From an uncultured Pedosphaera sp. (GTDB taxonomy: Bacteria; Verrucomicrobiota; Verrucomicrobiia; Limisphaerales; Pedosphaeraceae), in assembly GCA_903918755.1 (NCBI GenBank), contig CAIXFN010000030.1:1-64000 (forward strand): a stretch of 64,000 bases of DNA, given 5' to 3'. Shown piece by piece: positions 17,595 to 33,433 of the stretch. How positions within the stretch are numbered: position 1 is the stretch's first letter; each line of letters opens with the position of its first letter. Below the pieces are notes generated by a model. That model did not search any database and was not told the origin of the DNA. It saw only the letters and a program-made list of their open reading frames with translations. The position numbers and the translations under genes were made by a program.

Positions 17595-20500
17595 TTACGG
17601 GCGTTTCAGAGTCGTTTCGACGTATCCCTTTTTCAATTTTTCATTGATCAGACGAGTGGCCTCCTCGTTTGTCCTGGCATGGTCGGCAAACGTCTTGGTC
17701 TGTGACTGCCCGGGGGTGCCAATGCGACCAAAACGCACCGTGAATGAGGTGTCGGAAACAGAAATTTCCCAGAATTTCTGTGATTGGTCACCCACGAATT
17801 GAAAATGGCGAACCAAGGGTGCGCTTGCGCTATTTGCCGGTGATTGCTTTGTCGCCGTGGAGGTGATCGGATTAATGGGCGGTGCCGGAGGCGGAGCGAC
17901 AGCCGGGGGAGCGGTCACAACCGTGGCAACCGGACGCGATATTTCCACGGGTTCATCGTCGACCGGCGTTGCCGAATCGCTCAATTCCAGGCCCTTCAGC
18001 TTTTTTTCAAGCGCGGCCAGCACTTCGTCCGGATGGTGATACCAATCCTTGGTCAGGACCAGCGCAAAGCGCCACCCGAACGCTTGCAGGATGGATGGCT
18101 GCATCAGGTAACGGTCAAGGAGATCGGTGTTGGCGTAGTGACCATCCGTATCCACCAGGATGCCGAGTTGATACAGGCCATCGGCGGTGCCGCGGACTGC
18201 CAGGTCGCAGCGGAATTTTGATTGGCCCACGTTTAAATCCACCGCATAACCGCGTCCGCGCAACGCCGTCGCCAACTGTTCCACGACGGCGTCGCCGTGG
18301 CTGAGGGGGGCGAGTGCTTTGCGCGCCAAGGGATTCAGACTTTCCAATACCCGACGCGCAGTGCCTTCGTCACCCTTGGACACGGCTTCGGCGTATTGGA
18401 GGAAGTTTTTCAGGCTGTTCGCGCCGTCGTTGTAGTCGTTCGTGATGGCGTGATGGCGGATGGAACTCACGATGGCCATGTGATGCCGCGCGCGGGAGAA
18501 GATGACGTTCAGTCGCTTTTCGCCACCCCGTTGGTTGATCGGACCGAAGTTCATCAGCATCTTGGCATTGGCGTCCGGGCCGTAACAGACGCTCATGATG
18601 ATGATGTCCCGCTCGTCCCCCTGGACATTTTCCAGATTCTTCACAAAAAGCCCGCAAAACACCTCATTGTCCTGCCGGGTATACTCGGTCTCCAACAACG
18701 CGGCGAAAGCGGGGTCCTGCCCGGCCAGTTGGTTTAACGCACTTTCGAGTTCGCCCTGTTGCGCCTCGGAAAAGGCCACGAGGCCGATGCTCAACTTGGT
18801 CTCGCGTTGGAGAATGGCGCGAACCATCTGGGCGATATAGGCGGCTTCGGCCGGGTTGCGGCGGTCCTCGTAAAGTCCGTTTTCCAGGAAGTGAAAGCTG
18901 ATGCTGCGGGCCAGCAAGGCATCCACGTTGGCGGTCCCTTGCTCAACATCCGTAATGACCAACTCCGGCCGCTCCGCCAGGGCGCGCTGGCGGTCAGGGA
19001 TGGTATAAAGATTGCCGCCGTAAAACGCCGCATTGGAAAAACTGATCAGCGATTCGTAACGGCTGCGGTAATGCCAGGCCAGCAGCGTGGAAGGCAGATT
19101 CCGGGCGGATTGGTTCAAGAAGCTGTCGGAATCCAGATCGACGCGAATGGACTCACCTTCCTCCTCGACGATCACGCTCTCGTCCTCAGTGCGGGAGGTG
19201 CCAAAGAATGTTGTTGGCGGCAATTGCATTTCGTCGCCCACCACAATGGCCTGATGCGAACGGTAGATGGCCGGGATCGCCTCTTCCAAGGGGATCTGGC
19301 TGGCCTCGTCGAAGATCACCACATCGAATAGATCAGGATCGAGGGGCAGCGTGTCGGAGACGCTTAATGGGCTCATCAACCAGATCGGCTTCAGATCCTG
19401 GATGACCTGCCCGGTATCACCTGCCGCGAGATCGCGGATGGATTTATACCGCATGGTTTTGCCGAACTCATGTTCCAAGTCGCGCCGCCCGGCGGTGTAG
19501 GATTTTTTGAAAGCCTTCTGGTCCGCAGGTACCTGGGAAACCGGTAACGAGGAAAGGCTGACGTGTTCAAGGAATCTTCGTCGCACCGCCTGGCGGAGGC
19601 AGCGGGCATTCAATCTGAGCCAATCACGGTTATGCTTTTCCAGTTGGCTCATCTTGCGGTCGAGGATAGGCCCGGAAAAGCGGTTGACGGCGCGATCCGC
19701 GCGGTAAACTCCATTCATGCTTTTGTGCCCCATGGCGGCTTCAAAGGCATCCAGCGCCACCGGCGCATGCCGGAGCGCGTGTGTGAAGGAACCAGGCAAT
19801 TCGGTCAGTTCCGCCAGAATGGGCGACAATTCCGCGAGCAGGCCGGTCTGTTCCCGCAGTTTCGCCAGCACCTCCGCCAATTCGGGGAAATTAAACTGTT
19901 GGTGTCCGGCCAGCAGGGAATTTAGGGTCGCGTCCAGTTTGTTAAACTGCTCCCGGATTTCGACCAGATTCTTGACCAGCAATCCCGCATCGGAGGATTT
20001 CGTCAGTAGTTGCAGGAGCGCCTTGACCGACGGGTGCGCGAGGCCGGGATTGGCCCGGAGCGCCGTGGTTTGCGCCTGGAAGGCCGGCACGTCCGCCACC
20101 CGCCACTCCGCCGCCGCCCGGGCGGAGAGAGTTTCCCAGGCGGCGAGCGCTTTGTGCCGGGCGGACAGTTCACCGAGAATTTTGCTCCTGGCGGGCGCGA
20201 TGGCGTGCTGCGAAAAGTCGTAACGCGCAGCCAGGATTTTCTTGAGCCGCCAGAAGGAGGGCTGGAGGAAGCGAAAAATGGATTTCTCGAATGACCGTGC
20301 TTGAGTCAACGCGTTTTCCGTGTCATCGGGGGACAAAGGATCACGCCAGCCCGTGGTCTTTTGCTTGATTTCATTTAGTGTTCTGGCTTGGTGATCCAGG
20401 TCGGCGGCCAGCGCATCGAAGCTTTGTTTGGCCGGTCCATGGGTCAGGACGCCGAGCAGGTTGCGCTCGGCCAGCGGAAGGGCAACGACGGCAAAGTCCA

Positions 20501-23159
20501 GGATCGCCCCAATCTCGGCGAAACTATCCCAAAGCTCGCCGGGAAGACCGGAAAGCTCGAGGGCGTTTTCGATGGCATCGAGCAAATTCTCGGCTTGGTC
20601 CAAGTGCTGGCATAATGTTTCCAAGGGCCGGTCGGCTTGCAAAACGCCCGGGCCGAGCCAGCGAAGCGGATGCTTGGCGAAGCACCGTTCCGCTTCCCCG
20701 AGATCAGTCAGGGCCGCGGCCAGGCGGGTGACCACCTCACCATGTTGCAACCAGAGGGGGTAGTCGGGCAGGAGATCTTCCACTTCCGGGGGCAGTTCGA
20801 AAGCGCGTCCGCGCAGGGCCACCAGCCGGTGAAGGAGCGAGCGTACTGGGACTCCGGTGAGTTCATGCGCTCCGTGCATCACCGCGGAGAAGCGCCCCAG
20901 ACTGGCGAGATCCTGTTCCATGGAACGCAGGACGGTCGCCCGCACACTTTCCGCCTCCGGATCGAGGTCCGTCTGGCTCAAAAACTTCTCGTAAGTCTGC
21001 TTGAGGTTTTGGATGAACGCCTTCTTGTCCGTTTGCGAGTCATGAATCAGGCAGCATAGTTCATCAAGCCCTTGTTGGCGCAGGCGATCAAAAACCACGT
21101 CGATAGCAGCGCGTTTTTCGCACACAAACAAGACGCGCTTGCCGCGCCCGACGTAGTCGGCGATCAGGTTGGTAATGGTCTGGGATTTCCCTGTGCCGGG
21201 AGGACCTTGAATGATGTAGCTGCCGCCGGCGCGCGCACGAGCCACGGCTGAGGCTTGGGTGGCGTCGCAAGGGATGACGAGGTGCTGATCGGATAGCGCC
21301 AGGGGTGGGGGCGCTGATTCCTCGGGTGGTTTCGGGGTCAGCGAAAAGACGGAATCAAAAGCCTGGCTGGGAGTGTCTGACTCGATGAGCCGGGCATAAT
21401 CCCGCACCAGCGTCATTTTGCGGTAGTTGAAATTGCCGAGCGTCAAGCTGCAGAGGTCAAAGTCCCAGGCATAAGGATTTTGGTTTTGTCCGTCGTGCAG
21501 GGCAAATGTTCGGGCTTCGGTTTCCAACACCTTGTCGGGTTCCGGCGCGGCGACCGGATCAACGATGTGCGGCAGGCGCGGCTGGGGTGCTGCTCCCGCC
21601 ACATCCCGCAGGGGCAGGGGCTGGGGGCGCACCTTCTCCAGGAACAGTTGCAGCCCCAAAGGCCGGAAATTGGTACGATCGTAGCTGTAAGCCGGTTTGG
21701 AGGCCACCCGGTGCTTGCGGGCCTGCACTTTCAGGCGGCGCCGGTACTGGTCCACGCGTTGGCGGGCCTTTTCGTGGATGAGTTGAATTTGCGGCCGATC
21801 AATCTTGTTAAGCGTCACCGCCGGTTCGCTCGCCTGGATCTGCGCCTTGAGGGCCTCGAAAAAGGCGTCGAGCGAAGTTTCTTTCAAATCCACGAACTCC
21901 GGGAGCTGCAAATTGTAGAGTTCTTTGAGATGATGCCGCAGCGCGGGATTCACCTCGGCTTCGCTCGTGGTCGGGTCCAGGACATAGCTATCCCGCACGC
22001 CCTTTTTCTTGGTCAGTTCCACCGGCAGGAGCAGCAACGGCGAATGGATTCGCTCGTGCTTGTCCTCCTTGAGATTGTTCCAGCGAAGGAAACACAAAAC
22101 GAGTCGGAGTTGGGCGAAACCATATTCGGCGCGGTTGCGCCGCGCTTCGCTGATGATCGTGTCCAGCACGCCGGGGATATAGGGGGAATCCTCGAAACGG
22201 AGGTATTTTCCCAGCGACAACGGGGCGCCTTCGGTCACGGCGGCGGCCAGGGTCGGATGCCAGACAAAGAGCTGCTCCAGCTTGATATTCCGATAATCCA
22301 GCAACACCGGGACGGAGGCGACGGTCAAATTCAACGTTTGCAGCACCGGCTTAAAGTAAATGAGCCGGTTTCGCCGGGAGATTTCAAACAGCCGGTCCCG
22401 CAGGTGGGATTGGATTAGCCGCCGCTTGCCGGTGAGCGGGGATTCTTTGAATTCTTTGCGGCCGAAGACACTGGTGCCAAAGTCCGCTGATTGTTCGCGA
22501 TAATTTTCCAGCCGGGAAATGATTTGCGCGAGATCAGGCGCGCGTTTGTGGCGGTTTAGTTCCGTCAAGACCACGATGACCGAGGCGACCACCGGGTTGA
22601 TCCGGCGGTTTAAGCCAAACAGGTTAAGGCGGTTGGCGGCGAATACCTCCAAATTACCCAGGTCGGTAAAATCCAATCCGCAGGCCAGGCTGGCGAGTAA
22701 CATTCCGAGCGAAAAAATGTCGGTCAACTCGTCATGATGCCCAATCGCATGTTCCCAGGAGCGGTAGTCCGGCAGATAAACCGGCTTGGTGATGTCGCTG
22801 CCGGTTGCTGCGACGCCGAGGTCCGAGATGGTCAGCGAAGCCTGGTCGATATCTGCTGTGCGGCGGGATTGCGACACGACTTCCACTGCCCGGCTGAGGG
22901 GGGCCTGCAGATCCGCCACTTTGCCGGGTTGCTTTTTCGGCAATTGGGCTTTGTCCGGCGCAAACGTCAGTTGGCTGGCTTCGTCGAGTCGCAAATCCTG
23001 GATTCCGTCCAGGGGTGCCACCCGACCGGATTGGTGGACCACCTGTACCTGCTTCAGGAGCGGAAGCAAAGCTGCCAGCGCGTCATCGGTCGCAAAGCCT
23101 CCTGACGAGATACCCGCTTCGAGGAACTTGATAAACGGAGACTCGGAGGGCTCGCTCAT
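17595..23159 (-). CDS. Pseudokinase-SF1 helicase-nuclease-WGR fusion (COG1112/DUF4011)
   Basis: 1854 residues. Residues 1-230 resemble a kinase C-lobe without an intact catalytic site: VVHQSGRVAPLDG replaces the HRD loop, TISDLG the DFG, and ELTDIFSLGMLL the helix-F region. Around 245 starts DUF4011 (SHLRDRLFEISRRNRLIYF). An SF1 helicase follows, with Walker A GPPGTGKSQ near 650, VIFDEASQIP near 1283, VVGDEMQLPP, AWHYRSRYESL and NVIFSRARHHMAI. Residues ~1620-1710 form an MTES_1575/Vsr-like nuclease (LGILVDTDGHYAN, ILQAFGWRF). A Pro/Ala linker leads to a C-terminal WGR domain (VRFGRIGTPGQ, LKKGY). The architecture recalls anti-phage helicases such as Mokosh. Its start overlaps the upstream peptidase stop (ATGA). 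Confidence 0.92.
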   Translation of the reverse strand: MSEPSESPFIKFLEAGISSGGFATDDALAALLPLLKQVQVVHQSGRVAPLDGIQDLRLDEASQLTFAPDKAQLPKKQPGKVADLQAPLSRAVEVVSQSRRTADIDQASLTISDLGVAATGSDITKPVYLPDYRSWEHAIGHHDELTDIFSLGMLLASLACGLDFTDLGNLEVFAANRLNLFGLNRRINPVVASVIVVLTELNRHKRAPDLAQIISRLENYREQSADFGTSVFGRKEFKESPLTGKRRLIQSHLRDRLFEISRRNRLIYFKPVLQTLNLTVASVPVLLDYRNIKLEQLFVWHPTLAAAVTEGAPLSLGKYLRFEDSPYIPGVLDTIISEARRNRAEYGFAQLRLVLCFLRWNNLKEDKHERIHSPLLLLPVELTKKKGVRDSYVLDPTTSEAEVNPALRHHLKELYNLQLPEFVDLKETSLDAFFEALKAQIQASEPAVTLNKIDRPQIQLIHEKARQRVDQYRRRLKVQARKHRVASKPAYSYDRTNFRPLGLQLFLEKVRPQPLPLRDVAGAAPQPRLPHIVDPVAAPEPDKVLETEARTFALHDGQNQNPYAWDFDLCSLTLGNFNYRKMTLVRDYARLIESDTPSQAFDSVFSLTPKPPEESAPPPLALSDQHLVIPCDATQASAVARARAGGSYIIQGPPGTGKSQTITNLIADYVGRGKRVLFVCEKRAAIDVVFDRLRQQGLDELCCLIHDSQTDKKAFIQNLKQTYEKFLSQTDLDPEAESVRATVLRSMEQDLASLGRFSAVMHGAHELTGVPVRSLLHRLVALRGRAFELPPEVEDLLPDYPLWLQHGEVVTRLAAALTDLGEAERCFAKHPLRWLGPGVLQADRPLETLCQHLDQAENLLDAIENALELSGLPGELWDSFAEIGAILDFAVVALPLAERNLLGVLTHGPAKQSFDALAADLDHQARTLNEIKQKTTGWRDPLSPDDTENALTQARSFEKSIFRFLQPSFWRLKKILAARYDFSQHAIAPARSKILGELSARHKALAAWETLSARAAAEWRVADVPAFQAQTTALRANPGLAHPSVKALLQLLTKSSDAGLLVKNLVEIREQFNKLDATLNSLLAGHQQFNFPELAEVLAKLREQTGLLAELSPILAELTELPGSFTHALRHAPVALDAFEAAMGHKSMNGVYRADRAVNRFSGPILDRKMSQLEKHNRDWLRLNARCLRQAVRRRFLEHVSLSSLPVSQVPADQKAFKKSYTAGRRDLEHEFGKTMRYKSIRDLAAGDTGQVIQDLKPIWLMSPLSVSDTLPLDPDLFDVVIFDEASQIPLEEAIPAIYRSHQAIVVGDEMQLPPTTFFGTSRTEDESVIVEEEGESIRVDLDSDSFLNQSARNLPSTLLAWHYRSRYESLISFSNAAFYGGNLYTIPDRQRALAERPELVITDVEQGTANVDALLARSISFHFLENGLYEDRRNPAEAAYIAQMVRAILQRETKLSIGLVAFSEAQQGELESALNQLAGQDPAFAALLETEYTRQDNEVFCGLFVKNLENVQGDERDIIIMSVCYGPDANAKMLMNFGPINQRGGEKRLNVIFSRARHHMAIVSSIRHHAITNDYNDGANSLKNFLQYAEAVSKGDEGTARRVLESLNPLARKALAPLSHGDAVVEQLATALRGRGYAVDLNVGQSKFRCDLAVRGTADGLYQLGILVDTDGHYANTDLLDRYLMQPSILQAFGWRFALVLTKDWYHHPDEVLAALEKKLKGLELSDSATPVDDEPVEISRPVATVVTAPPAVAPPPAPPINPITSTATKQSPANSASAPLVRHFQFVGDQSQKFWEISVSDTSFTVRFGRIGTPGQSQTKTFADHARTNEEATRLINEKLKKGYVETTLKRP

Positions 23160-24358
23160 AGGGCAGTTTCCGCCTTGGCCAGTTGCGCGCTCGCTTGATC
23201 CTTAAGCTTTTGCACCTCGCGCAGCTTCAGTTTGAGCTCTTTGGCAGCAAATTTCTCGAATTGGGTATCCATCTGCAACTGCCGACTCAGCTCCAGGGCG
23301 GCCATGAGCGGGAGGTCTTCCAGTTCGGGATCGGCGGTGACAAAATCCAGCAGCAACGAGCAAAAATATTCACATAGTGTGGCATCGCTAAACTTGAGAC
23401 TGGACAGGACCGAGGCATCGCGCACCTTGGCCGGCTGGAAGTCGGCAAAGAAAAGCCTGGCGTGACCCAGAGTGGCGGTGGTTTGAAACCATTTGGGCTG
23501 CAGAAAATATTCCAGGAAGCGGCGGGTCAGGGTGCTAATCCGGGCCTGGCCGAGCAAGTCCAGTGTGTCGAATGAGAGGGCTCCTTCGATCATTTCGGTG
23601 ATCTTCGGGGTCGCGTCGTCGCCGCAGTCGCGCCACAACGCCAGGGCGCGCGCCCGAATAAACGCCTCCGGATGGGACAATCCCTCCGTGGCGACGTTGC
23701 CTTTGGCGAATATTTCCTCCGCCTGTCGCAAATAGCTGGGCGCGCTGACCTGACTCAGTCCGGTCTGGATTTTTACCAGGCTGGCCACCACGGGATTGAG
23801 ATCACCCGTAACACAGAGGGAGCCGCGGTCGGCAAAGATCTCCGTGTAGAGTTGATAGCGTCGGGCGGTCTGTTCATGACTGCCAGCCGCGCGCGGATCG
23901 TTGCCAACGGCCTGAAGGAGGCGGTCGGCGATATGGAATTCGCCTACCGCGAGACTCCAAAGGACCTGATGCGCCAACTCATGGCCAATGACAGATTGGA
24001 CCTCCCCGGCATCCAATTGGGACAGCAGCGAGCCCGAAAATACAATGTGAGCTTCGCCCGGCATGAAATAAAGCGCGGCGTTGGGATGGGGGCTGTTCTG
24101 CGCCTGATAAAGCGTGACGGGAATCTCGAGTTGGAGTCGCTCCTTGGCCACCGCCACACCTTGGTAAAGTTCCGGATGCCCCTCGGCATCCAGGCGGTAA
24201 GTAGACCGGAGCAACTCCTGCCGCAAATTGTCGGTGTAATCAGCCTGCGCGCGCGCGGAGGCGAACCAATTCCACAATTCCCGCTCCTGCGACTTGAGGT
24301 AATCCCGCAATTCGAGGTGGTACGGCAACGGTTCCAGTTTTTTGTTTAGCGTTTCCAA
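23156..24358 (-). CDS. M48-like zinc metallopeptidase coupled to the helicase
   Basis: 400 residues with no signal peptide or membrane helices, unlike most M48 proteins. VIGHELAHQ supplies the HExxH zinc site near residue 125, and YTEIFADRG a plausible third zinc ligand (Glu) region. The C-terminal half is helical and ends in a charged coiled-coil-like stretch (KELKLKLREVQKLKDQ). The start is TTG at 24358, as no in-frame ATG fits. Its stop overlaps the helicase start by 4 nt, so the two are probably translated together. A cytoplasmic protease tied to a nuclease-helicase suggests processing or regulation of a partner. Confidence 0.82.
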   Translation of the reverse strand: METLNKKLEPLPYHLELRDYLKSQERELWNWFASARAQADYTDNLRQELLRSTYRLDAEGHPELYQGVAVAKERLQLEIPVTLYQAQNSPHPNAALYFMPGEAHIVFSGSLLSQLDAGEVQSVIGHELAHQVLWSLAVGEFHIADRLLQAVGNDPRAAGSHEQTARRYQLYTEIFADRGSLCVTGDLNPVVASLVKIQTGLSQVSAPSYLRQAEEIFAKGNVATEGLSHPEAFIRARALALWRDCGDDATPKITEMIEGALSFDTLDLLGQARISTLTRRFLEYFLQPKWFQTTATLGHARLFFADFQPAKVRDASVLSSLKFSDATLCEYFCSLLLDFVTADPELEDLPLMAALELSRQLQMDTQFEKFAAKELKLKLREVQKLKDQASAQLAKAETAL

Positions 24359-24480: not shown

Positions 24481-24509
24481 TTGACATACATAGCGTTACA
24501 ATGTATAAT
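24481..24509 (+). promoter_or_regulatory. Consensus sigma70-type promoter with overlapping PadR-like operator
   Basis: TTGACA (24481-24486), exactly 17 bp, then TATAAT (24504-24509): a perfect consensus, unlike the weak signals elsewhere. Within it, ATACAT (24486-24491) and ATGTAT (24501-24506) form an inverted repeat with a 9-bp centre, of the ATGT/ACAT type bound by PadR proteins. The -10 ends 6 bp before the PadR ATG, so the transcript should begin at or within a base or two of the start codon. Confidence 0.8.
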
Positions 24510-30641: not shown

Positions 30642-31403
30642 ATGATTCCTTCGAGCCCAAACGACCATTCGCTGGCAGGCCTGGCTGACCGAAGGCAGGA
30701 TTTTCCCACCACGCAGTGGACACTGGTGATGCGGGTGCAGCAAAGCGGCGAGGTGCGGCAGGCCGCGCTCGAAGAATTGTGCCGGCTTTACTGGTATCCC
30801 ATTTACGCCTTTCTCCGCCGACGTGGCTATCCGCAACATGATGCGGAGGATTTCACGCAAGGGTTCTTCATCAAGCTGCTGGCGGAGGAAAGTCTTTCCG
30901 CTGTGGACGGAAGCAAGGGCCGGCTGCGCACCTACCTGCTTCACCACCTCAAGCGGCACCTCACGGATCAAAAGCGTTTCAACGGGGCGCTGAAGCGCGG
31001 CGGCGGCGTGAACACCATTTCCTTTGACGAAATGCGCGCCGAGGAACGCTATGCGCACGAACCGCAAGACGAGCGCGATCCGGAGCGCCTCTTCACCCGC
31101 GCCTGGGCCCATGAACTGCTGGCGGGCGTGCGCGAAAAATTGCGCGCGGACTTTGAAGGCGCGAAACGGCCCCATGCTTTTGAGGTGCTGCTGCCGTTTC
31201 TGCTGCTCGATGACGACCCGCCGTCGTATCGCGAGGTCGCGGCGCAACTGTGCGCCACCGAGGTCTCCGTCCGGCTCATGGTCAGCCGGTTGCGCGCGAA
31301 ATTCCGCACCCTACTGCGCGAAGAGGTGGCCCGTACCGTGCTAACGCCGGAGGATTTGAACGGGGAAATGGAATCGCTGAAGTCCGTCCTGACGGCGGCA
31401 TGA
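30642..31403 (+). CDS. ECF sigma factor coupled to a Ser/Thr kinase
   Basis: 253 residues. FPTTQWTLVMRVQQ is the characteristic opening of the kinase-associated ECF sigma factors of Verrucomicrobiota and Planctomycetota. Sigma region 2 contains YWYPIYAFLRRRGYPQHDAEDFTQGFF. The C-terminal helix-turn-helix is SYREVAAQLCATEVSVRLMVSRLRAKF. Its stop overlaps the kinase start (ATGA), a strong sign of coupled expression. In this group the kinase usually controls the sigma factor by phosphorylation; no separate anti-sigma is present. Confidence 0.9.
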   Translation: MIPSSPNDHSLAGLADRRQDFPTTQWTLVMRVQQSGEVRQAALEELCRLYWYPIYAFLRRRGYPQHDAEDFTQGFFIKLLAEESLSAVDGSKGRLRTYLLHHLKRHLTDQKRFNGALKRGGGVNTISFDEMRAEERYAHEPQDERDPERLFTRAWAHELLAGVREKLRADFEGAKRPHAFEVLLPFLLLDDDPPSYREVAAQLCATEVSVRLMVSRLRAKFRTLLREEVARTVLTPEDLNGEMESLKSVLTAA

Positions 31404-33433
31404 GTTCGCCTGCACCCCCATCTGCCGGGCCGGGTGCAAAGCGCGACTGGCAGCCGCCTTCGCTGGCGGAGTTGCAGTTGTTGCTGCCGGCGTATCAGTT
31501 TCTGGCGCTCCTCGGGTGCGGCGGCATGGGAGCGGTTTTCAAGGCCACGCAGCTTTCGCTGAACCGGCCCGTCGCCATCAAAGTCCTGCCGGCAAACCTG
31601 CTGGAAGATGCCGAGGCCAATTTCGCCGCGCGCTTCCGGCAGGAGTCGCTGACCATGGCCAAACTCGCGCATCCCGGCATCGTAGGCGTGTTCGAATCGG
31701 GCGAGGCGGGCGGGTTGCTCTACATCGTCATGGAGTTCGTGGACGGCACGGACGTGGCGCGCTTGATTCAGAGCGAGGGAAAACTTGCGCCGGAACGCGC
31801 GACGATGCTGCTCACGCAAGTCTGCGACGCGCTGCACTACGCCCACCAGAACGGCGTGGTGCATCGCGACATCAAGCCAGCGAACCTCCTGCTCACGCGT
31901 GGCGGCGTGGTGAAGATTGCCGACTTCGGACTGGCGAAGCACCGCGACGATGCGTTGCAGGGGTTGACCAAAACCAACGTGGCGATGGGCACGCCGGACT
32001 TCCTCGCCCCCGAGGCATGGACGCCGAACACGCCACTCGACCGGCGGGCGGACGTGTTTGCCCTGGGCGTGACCCTCTACCAGATGCTGACGGGCGAAAT
32101 TCCGCGCGGCTTCTGGGAAATGCCCAGCGCGCTCGTGGCCACGGACGCGCGCTTCGATGCGATCATCGAGCGCGCGCTACAGCCCAAACCCGAGGCGCGC
32201 TACCAGTCTTCCGTTGAGCTGCGCCGGGACCTGGAGAAGATCCAGGCCGAACCCTGGAGCGCCGGGCAACTTTCGGCCCTGGATAAGCACCCTATTTCCG
32301 GGGCAAGCGATACCCGCCTTTCGCGCTCGGTGGCTGCGCCAACAAAACGGCGGGCGCTGATCGCGCTGATCGCAGTGGCCGTGGTGATCGCGGGTATTCT
32401 GGTGGCGATCCGCAGGCCGCACCTGCCGAAAGAGACCGCCAGCAGCTCACCCGGTCCTTCCGGCAAATGGACCGTCACCACCGCGACCGACGGCGGTCCC
32501 GGTTCACTGCGACAGCTGCTGGCCGAAGCCGCCGCTTCGCCGGGTGCGGACACCATCACCTTTGCCGCTGGACTCTCCGGCTATCTCAAACTGACCAACG
32601 AATTGGTGGTTGAGGACGTCGGAGGCGTGACGGTGGACGGAAGCGGATTGCCCGGCGGTGTGACGATTGACGGTCGTGAAGGAAAACACCGCATCTTCTC
32701 GGTGAACGCGGAGGCCGTTCTGGCGCTGAAGAACCTCACCCTCACGGGCGGCAATGGTGACGGGGTGGCGGGTAAAACTCACGGCGGGGCCATCTTCAAT
32801 TACGGTGTCCTGACGGCCACTGGCTGCACTTTTGCCACTAATACTGCCATTGGCAATGGCGGGGCCGTACACAATGGTCAGCGCGGCATGGCGAGTTTCA
32901 CCAACTGTACTTTTTTCGGCAATAACCAGACCGGTAAGAGAAGGGGCGTTAAGACCGGCGGCGGAGCGCTTAACAACTCCGCCACCAGCCACAGTTTGAC
33001 CCTGGTTCATTGCACCATTGTGGGAAATATCTCCACGGGGAGCGAAGGCGGTGGCGGCGTCCGCAACCACGGTTTCAGGTTCACGCTGCAGAACTGCATT
33101 GTCGCGGGTAACCAAAGCGATCTCGGCCCGGACATCAGCGCCGGATTACCGGTCTTTATTTCCGCGGGCGGCAATCTCATCGGCAACAACGCGGGACTCC
33201 GCTGGAAACCGATTGCCAGCGACCTGGTGGGTTCAGAGGTTTCCCCGCTCGACCCCCGGATCGCCCCGCTAGGCCGCTACGGCGGTTCGACGCCGACCAT
33301 GCCGCCATTGCCCGGTTCGCCGGCGATTGACGCCGCCAGCGCCAGTAATGTTACCACCGACCAGCGCGGATTTCTGCGTCCCCTGGGGGCCGCGCCGGAT
33401 ATCGGCGCAGTGGAGTTTCGCGTGGCCAAGTGA
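31400..33433 (+). CDS. Transmembrane Ser/Thr kinase with extracytoplasmic beta-helix
   Basis: 677 residues. Kinase domain: P-loop LLGCGGMGAVFKA, Lys in VAIKVLP, HRD loop VVHRDIKPANLL (~153), DFG in KIADFGLAKH (~172) and FLAPEAW (~201), all intact. One membrane helix follows (RRALIALIAVAVVIAGILVAI, ~317-337). Residues ~350-677 are outside: a parallel beta-helix with Asn/Gly turns (FNYGVLTATGCTFATNTAIG, SLTLVHCTIVGN) and the closing SPAIDAA...PDIGAVEF of choice-of-anchor Q/CSLREA proteins. The beta-helix is a likely glycan or surface sensor. The longer frame from 31250 overlaps the sigma gene and is rejected. Confidence 0.92.
   Translation: MSSPAPPSAGPGAKRDWQPPSLAELQLLLPAYQFLALLGCGGMGAVFKATQLSLNRPVAIKVLPANLLEDAEANFAARFRQESLTMAKLAHPGIVGVFESGEAGGLLYIVMEFVDGTDVARLIQSEGKLAPERATMLLTQVCDALHYAHQNGVVHRDIKPANLLLTRGGVVKIADFGLAKHRDDALQGLTKTNVAMGTPDFLAPEAWTPNTPLDRRADVFALGVTLYQMLTGEIPRGFWEMPSALVATDARFDAIIERALQPKPEARYQSSVELRRDLEKIQAEPWSAGQLSALDKHPISGASDTRLSRSVAAPTKRRALIALIAVAVVIAGILVAIRRPHLPKETASSSPGPSGKWTVTTATDGGPGSLRQLLAEAAASPGADTITFAAGLSGYLKLTNELVVEDVGGVTVDGSGLPGGVTIDGREGKHRIFSVNAEAVLALKNLTLTGGNGDGVAGKTHGGAIFNYGVLTATGCTFATNTAIGNGGAVHNGQRGMASFTNCTFFGNNQTGKRRGVKTGGGALNNSATSHSLTLVHCTIVGNISTGSEGGGGVRNHGFRFTLQNCIVAGNQSDLGPDISAGLPVFISAGGNLIGNNAGLRWKPIASDLVGSEVSPLDPRIAPLGRYGGSTPTMPPLPGSPAIDAASASNVTTDQRGFLRPLGAAPDIGAVEFRVAK

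What the first reader, a model, noticed from the sequence alone, without database searches (positions are those of the whole stretch)
17595..24358. Defence-like operon: M48 peptidase + pseudokinase/SF1 helicase/nuclease/WGR giant + HEAT protein
Seen: an ATGA overlap joins a cytoplasmic HExxH peptidase to a 1854-residue protein with, in order, a kinase C-lobe lacking HRD/DFG residues, DUF4011, an SF1 helicase with intact ATPase motifs, an MTES_1575/Vsr-like nuclease and a WGR domain; a HEAT-repeat gene follows 48 bp later. Known: COG1112 helicases with kinase-like or nuclease parts occur in anti-phage systems such as Mokosh, and WGR domains sense DNA ends or breaks in PARP-like proteins. Inference: the set is an undescribed nucleic-acid-sensing system in which the peptidase processes a partner or is regulated by the giant protein.
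Basis: partly seen in the sequence, partly recalled or inferred. Interest (0 to 1): 0.85.

Follow-up and report, generated by a model that had tools for sequence, protein, structure and literature searches.

The report
Protease paired with pseudonuclease helicase
In some Verrucomicrobiota bacteria a zinc protease gene is locked to the gene of a giant helicase related to known anti-phage proteins, whose own DNA-cutting site looks worn out, which suggests a helicase-triggered protease rather than a helicase-nuclease.

Summary
Two of the three genes form a real unit; the third does not belong. The peptidase (window 23156-24358, minus strand) is M48-type with intact zinc ligands and, tentatively, a TerB-like C-terminal domain. 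The giant (17595-23159, minus strand) is a degenerate kinase, DUF4011, an intact SF1 helicase, an MTES_1575/Vsr-type nuclease domain and WGR. In 13 of 13 testable loci (window included) the giant lies directly downstream of the peptidase; 13 of 14 clade giants found have the peptidase. A further genome encodes a related M48 peptidase fused to a DUF4011 helicase-nuclease in one 1902-residue protein. The HEAT gene was not found beside the giant elsewhere. All 14 M48-linked proteins with a readable nuclease domain lack the glutamate of the nuclease motif that 28 of 34 other fetched relatives keep, while peptidase and helicase sites stay intact. Best reading: the helicase is a nucleic-acid-triggered ATPase and the protease has become the effector. 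No clear defence-island context was found, so antiviral function is inference. Nearest families are ProA and Hhe, but this is a separate clade with different ends: a new variant of a known kind.

The parts
23156..24358 (-). M48-family metallopeptidase gene, 400 aa, TTG start
   Evidence: PF01435 30.7 bits; partner of the giant in 13 of 13 testable loci
23609..24241 (-). M48 catalytic domain (about residues 40-250); HELAH at residues 126-130, third ligand E173, HPE 229-231
   Evidence: invariant in 12 peptidases and the G220 fusion; structural matches Ste24/ZMPSTE24/BepA Z 9.1-9.6
23174..23599 (-). TerB-like helical domain (residues 254-395), tentative
   Evidence: 2ou3 Z 7.8, rmsd 5.4, 135 aligned
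23156..23159 (-). ATGA stop/start overlap
17595..23159 (-). giant helicase gene, 1854 aa
22500..23123 (-). degenerate kinase C-lobe (about residues 13-220)
   Evidence: hhalign 96.1%, E 3.6e-9, 172 columns
21927..22394 (-). DUF4011 (residues 256-411)
   Evidence: PF13195 51.2 bits
18462..21266 (-). SF1 helicase core (residues 632-1566)
   Evidence: PF13086, PF13087; motifs
17997..18281 (-). MTES_1575/Vsr-type nuclease domain (residues 1627-1721), usual Glu replaced by Leu
   Evidence: PF18741 57.9 bits; alignment
17613..17795 (-). WGR domain (residues 1789-1849); not detected in L047 and L052
   Evidence: PF05406 61.7 bits
16905..17546 (-). HEAT-repeat gene, neighbour judged not to be part of the unit

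Best explanation
A two-subunit, helicase-triggered protease of the DUF4011 anti-phage helicase family. Shown: peptidase and giant are one unit; the peptidase and ATPase sites are intact; the nuclease site is eroded throughout the clade while the domain itself stays conserved; the unit is accessory. Inferred: the SF1 helicase engages foreign or damaged nucleic acid, with WGR (where present) and the nuclease-derived domain as binding parts; ATP-driven rearrangement is passed through the pseudokinase/DUF4011 region to the M48 subunit, which then cleaves a protein target (of the phage, or of the host to stop growth). The protease takes the effector place that the nuclease has in ProA- and Hhe-type relatives.
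For: Giant directly downstream in 13 of 13 testable peptidase loci (a 14th, L048, ends inside the peptidase gene). ATGA coupling in 10 of 13 as called and 11 of 13 with a later start in L052. In G220 a related M48 peptidase (hhalign 98.5%, 27% identity over 201 columns) is fused to DUF4011-helicase-MTES_1575 in one frame. H126, E127, H130, E173 and D177 invariant in 12 peptidases and the fusion. Walker A in 14 of 14 giants; all seven motif patterns in 10 of 13 giants that are long enough. Nuclease Glu: 0 of 14 M48-linked, 28 of 34 other fetched helicases. The domain is still 77% identical to L042, beside 80% for the helicase. G001, same genus, has no peptidase and keeps the neighbouring sulfatase and esterase without the cassette. 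G007 (window's family) groups with G026 (another family), 98/89, which hints at transfer. TerB is listed for the Shango and Bunzi defence systems (passage of PMC10952713). An M48-annotated gene lies in an E. coli R-M/DarTG island that protects against phage (passages of PMC12255303; the passages do not give the M48 gene's own role).
Against: No defence-island signal: 117 neighbours scanned (individual tracing of 20) gave one specific-looking hit, SWIM_XIII in L042. G182 has a clade giant but no peptidase in its genome, and it too lacks the Glu. Glu loss occurs in 6 of 34 relatives without M48; only 2 (starred) to 3 independent contrasts exist and the tree test is not significant. Vsr-type nucleases need not use a Glu there (recalled). 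The fusion's place in the tree is unsure (long branches). L042 and L045 share a housekeeping neighbour and G217/G290 share the peptidase-side flank, so part of the distribution may be vertical.
Confidence: 0.45

Rival explanations
1. A DNA-protein crosslink repair machine, working like SPRTN/Wss1: the helicase runs along DNA, WGR recognises breaks, and the metallopeptidase removes proteins stuck to DNA. Stress repair rather than immunity.
For: SprT-like (PF10263) is the second Pfam hit, E 1.8e-4, under its cut-off; a Spartan-type entry (6mdw) is among the weak Foldseek hits, E 2.5; WGR belongs to break-sensing PARPs (recalled); neighbours are mostly ordinary genes (25 of 88 families shown).
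Against: The third ligand position is the M48 Glu (E173), not a His as in SprT/WLM (recalled). Sparse distribution and mostly different flanks. The nearest named families are annotated anti-phage. WGR is not found in 2 of the pair giants.
Confidence: 0.2
2. One reading: the giant is the effector (a nuclease with an unusual active site) and the peptidase only matures, releases or degrades it, as a regulator.
For: Two Asp of the nuclease motif are mostly kept (first Asp in 13 of 13 clade rows, second Asp in 11 of 13, Glu in 2); Vsr-type sites vary (recalled); G182 has the giant alone.
Against: Glu and the DRD..R residues are lost in the whole clade. The fusion places a related peptidase in the same chain.
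Confidence: 0.2
3. A non-defence nucleic-acid or stress function (for example RNA surveillance or replication stress) that some Verrucomicrobiota lineages keep.
For: Neighbouring genes are mostly housekeeping; DUF4011 proteins can be core genes (P. aeruginosa flank gene, passages of PMC10250203).
Against: Absent from most sampled genomes; relationship to ProA and Hhe.
Confidence: 0.12

Closest known systems
ProA (NCBIfam NF058533 'anti-phage protein ProA'; PADLOC PDC-S37 matches residues 565-1735 of the giant)
   Same: Homologous helicase-MTES_1575 core: 687.6 bits, best stretch residues 618-1770 on profile 637-1743
   Different: Below the 1500-bit cut-off; best stretches begin at profile position 552-637 and end by 1743 of 1903. 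Own kinase-like N-terminus, WGR end, M48 partner, Glu lost
Hhe (NCBIfam NF042953, PADLOC Hhe)
   Same: DUF4011 + SF1 helicase + MTES_1575 core, 464 bits
   Different: Cut-off 2000 bits; Hhe L087 starts with DUF4011 (motif at residue 30), keeps IECDG, and its listed neighbours hold no peptidase (the plasmid gene table is incomplete)
Mokosh (MkoA/MkoC)
   Same: Related helicase part, 125.6 bits to MkoA; the window's true kinase matches the N-terminal part of a MkoA profile
   Different: Here the kinase part is degenerate; no PLD partner seen; M48 instead
SF1 helicase giants with transglutaminase-like peptidase, Vsr-type nuclease, wHTH and HEPN (MTES_1575 type; passages of PMC3710099)
   Same: Peptidase + SF1 helicase + Vsr-type nuclease
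   Different: Other peptidase fold (recalled); here M48 as a separate subunit or separate fusion, pseudokinase and WGR, no HEPN hit
Hachiman HamAB (passages of PMC12278908)
   Same: Works-like: sensor helicase gating an effector subunit
   Different: Its effector is a nuclease; no homology tested

Membership tests
ProA (NF058533) | score over the curated cut-off of 1500 bits | tested here: not met
   687.6 bits; clade giants 633-652 bits where 31 of 387 genomes are over the cut-off
Hhe (NF042953) | score over the curated cut-off of 2000 bits | tested here: not met
   464.3 bits
M48 metallopeptidase | HExxH, downstream Glu ligand, Pfam M48 over cut-off | tested here: met
M48 metallopeptidase | proteolytic activity | not testable with these tools
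   needs enzyme assay
TerB domain | TerB fold | tested here: inconclusive
   2ou3 Z 7.8 on a moderate helical model; no Pfam TerB hit; phmmer of the fusion's stretch against PDB found nothing
SF1 helicase | Walker A/B and further motifs | tested here: met
Active MTES_1575 nuclease | conserved IECDG glutamate | tested here: not met
   0 of 14 M48-linked proteins
Active Ser/Thr kinase (as in Mokosh) | HRD and DFG residues | tested here: not met
   HRD position reads VAPL, DFG absent in the alignment
SPRTN/WLM protease | SprT-like profile over cut-off | tested here: not met
   21.8 bits, cut-off 25.6
Anti-phage defence system | co-location with known defence genes | tested here: inconclusive
   117 of about 130 listed neighbours within 7 kb; one specific-looking hit; no control set of loci was scanned, so no enrichment test
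Anti-phage defence system | protection against phage | not testable with these tools
   needs plaque assays
   0 of 11 other pair loci with downstream sequence

The most novel reading that the evidence does not exclude
A helicase-family immune system that swapped its effector: the ancestral nuclease became a non-catalytic DNA-binding or allosteric adaptor, and an M48 (probably M48-TerB) protease gated by the helicase through a pseudokinase does the work. This would be a nucleic-acid-activated metalloprotease immune system.
Probability: 0.35. Interest if true: 0.82.

Novelty: new variant of a known kind. Interest (0 to 1): 0.6.

Why it matters
Helicase-based defence is usually read as helicase plus nuclease. 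If a whole clade kept the motor, lost the nuclease site and took a protease instead, the motor would be the sensor and the effector would be exchangeable. That makes a simple question testable: does DNA or infection switch on an M48 protease? The one-chain G220 fusion offers a convenient form for structural work.

Tried and rejected
AlphaFold of giant residues 1-620 failed (mean pLDDT 41.2) and was not used. The peptidase model is moderate (63.7); Foldseek gave no match at E <= 0.001 (best 4aw6, ZMPSTE24, E 0.022), so the fold statements rest on Pfam, motifs and VIA-align. Mobile collections: the pattern scans of IMG/VR found no relative of the peptidase or of the giant's first 620 residues; no peptidase match in the plasmid collection; the giant has one phage record and 415 plasmid records with partial, under-60%-identity matches. 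An empty site in G001 was sought: one flank is syntenic, the other is not, so no clean site. The HEAT gene as a member: rejected. 'Glu loss is unique to protease-linked giants': rejected, 6 of 34 others lack it; those 34 rows are the ones fetched as loci (24, 6, 4 plasmids), not all 120 of 374 genomes with a match. Dropped before that count: L003 (fragment without the domain), L048 (peptidase start only), duplicates of the same gene. No HExxH was seen in the chosen frames of 15 non-M48 helicase loci. Three further weak M48 matches (G214, G234, G104; E 1.5e-6 to 2.1e-4) are unrelated-looking; the two looked at with wide flanks have no such helicase beside them (L054, L055). Control for the kinase match: of 12 proteins 5 had N-termini too short to compare; the other 6 helicases and the first 300 residues of the fusion gave probabilities of about 1% or less. 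Flank synteny of G217/G290 is on the peptidase side only; my notebook says both sides, which is wrong. The notebook also says that only 12 'others' lack the kinase part, which holds for the 7 compared. Literature searches on ProA, PDC-S37, DUF4011, MTES_1575 and M48/TerB with helicase and phage terms listed no paper on an M48-DUF4011 pair; subscription journals and most preprints are outside that library. I did not find a paper that describes ProA. Papers seen as passages: PMC10250203, PMC3710099, PMC12278908, PMC10952713, PMC12255303; all others in listings only.

Full report
Observation. The genes lie on the minus strand in the order peptidase (24358-23156), giant (23159-17595), HEAT (17546-16905). 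Pfam gives M48 for the first; DUF4011, AAA_11/12, MTES_1575 and WGR for the second; HEAT_2 for the third. Stop and start of the first two share ATGA. The kinase C-lobe, not reported by Pfam, is backed by hhalign of 14 clade N-termini against 22 kinases of the own genome (96.1%, E 3.6e-9, 172 columns): the DIFSLG region and the following helices are there, HRD and DFG are not. Six other long-N-terminus helicases and the first 300 residues of the G220 fusion gave about 1% or less; five more helicases had N-termini too short to compare.

Unit. Clade-type peptidases were found at 14 loci including the window. L048 ends inside the peptidase; in the 13 others the giant follows directly. Ten overlap by ATGA as called, L052 could with a later start, L044 overlaps by 11 bases and L047 has a 24-base gap. 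In G026 the peptidase is split over two contigs with an identical 42-residue overlap, so it counts once. Of 14 clade giants 13 have the peptidase; G182 has none in its genome. In G220 a related M48 peptidase is fused to a DUF4011 helicase with an MTES_1575 domain in one 1902-residue frame. In the helicase tree that fusion lies outside the clade beside another long branch, so whether the link arose twice is unsure.

HEAT gene. Only the own genome gives a strong match among 40 relatives; G002 and G028 give weak ones. It is not beside the giant in 11 other pair loci with downstream sequence nor in G182. It is a neighbour, not a member.

Peptidase. H126, E127, H130, E173, D177 and the HPE motif at 229-231 are invariant in 12 peptidases and the fusion. 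The AlphaFold model is moderate (pLDDT 63.7). By VIA-align, residues about 40-250 match Ste24/ZMPSTE24 and BepA (Z 9.1-9.6) and residues 254-395 match a COG3793 tellurite-resistance protein (2ou3, Z 7.8, rmsd 5.4). The tool's own note says that Z of this size in helical parts can be a common arrangement, so TerB is tentative. TerB (PF05099) is listed for Shango and Bunzi (passage of PMC10952713).

Nuclease. Aligned without gaps to G001's protein, the window reads GILVDTDGHY where that protein reads GVECDGATYH. The Glu column holds L, M, F or I in 13 of 13 clade rows with a peptidase, F in the solitary giant, L in the fusion; E in 28 of 34 other fetched helicases. Fisher's p (1.7e-7) ignores kinship; the tree offers 2-3 independent contrasts and no significance. 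The domain stays conserved (77% identity to L042, helicase 80%), which suggests a kept binding or structural role. That the Glu is catalytic is inferred from its conservation and from recalled PD-(D/E)XK knowledge.

Known families. The 14 clade giants are separated at 99/98 from 33 other helicases, among them Hhe (L087) and ProA-type proteins; L031 and the fusion lie elsewhere. Against ProA the giants score 676-692 bits by hmmscan and 633-652 in the genome search, cut-off 1500; against Hhe the window scores 464, cut-off 2000. ProA proper passes its cut-off in 31 of 387 phylum genomes; the M48 pair is in 5 of 387, own included, and in 3 of 40 relatives, own included. Giants with an SF1 helicase, a transglutaminase-like peptidase and a Vsr-type nuclease are in print (passages of PMC3710099), so a peptidase in such proteins is not new as an idea. 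An M48 pair or fusion of this kind was not found in my searches (named under Tried and rejected).

Context. G001, same genus, has the sulfatase and esterase that stand near the cassette, but no cassette. G007 (window's family) groups with G026 (another family), 98/89. Shared flanks were seen only for G217/G290 on the peptidase side, and for L042/L045, which share a neighbour that reads as coaD; some further cross-matches are short or between common families. About 130 neighbours were listed and 117 scanned with PADLOC; L091's eleven and a few cut frames were dropped, and several window frames were swapped for likelier ones. Hits: SWIM_XIII in L042, an intact kinase in the window, one DinG-type helicase, and some ATPase-type families in 2-4 genes each that I did not trace one by one (25 of 53 families shown; 20 of 81 genes traced). 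This speaks against a strong defence-island reading, though no control loci were scanned.

Mechanism. Shown: unit, intact protease and ATPase sites, worn nuclease site, accessory distribution. Inferred: nucleic-acid-driven ATPase activity gates the protease, as the sensor helicase gates its effector in Hachiman (passages and abstract lines of PMC12278908). Confidence 0.45; rivals are crosslink repair (0.2), a regulatory peptidase with a still-working nuclease (0.2) and a non-defence role (0.12).

Noticed in passing
window 24481-24509: A perfect sigma-70 consensus (TTGACA, 17, TATAAT, 12 of 12) at the start of the PadR-type regulator gene that is divergent from the cassette; the PadR start is probably the later ATG.
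   Followed up: no
L042 11219-14737: About 1 kb beyond the giant a same-strand set of genes ends in a protein matching the retron XIII-associated SWIM profile (E 2.2e-132).
   Followed up: partly
L053 7269-12977: One-frame fusion of M48 peptidase, possible TerB-like stretch, DUF4011, SF1 helicase and MTES_1575 domain.
   Followed up: yes
L099 3505-8154 and L100 8585-13267: Helicases that lost the nuclease Glu without an M48 partner; both stand next to a gene that reads like thymidylate kinase.
   Followed up: partly
L025 7690-13211: The giant of G007 is split by a frame change near residue 1570; real or an assembly error is unknown.
   Followed up: no
G026 contigs C237, C152, C655: Peptidase and giant are spread over three short contigs; the two peptidase pieces share an identical 42-residue overlap, so it looks like one gene cut by assembly.
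   Followed up: yes
window 31250-33433: An intact Ser/Thr kinase (HRD and DFG present) with a long C-terminal extension; the genome has 33 Pkinase matches.
   Followed up: no
G000:C30:173056-174495: A second, distant COG1112-like helicase (open frame 1175 aa) on the same contig as the window.
   Followed up: no
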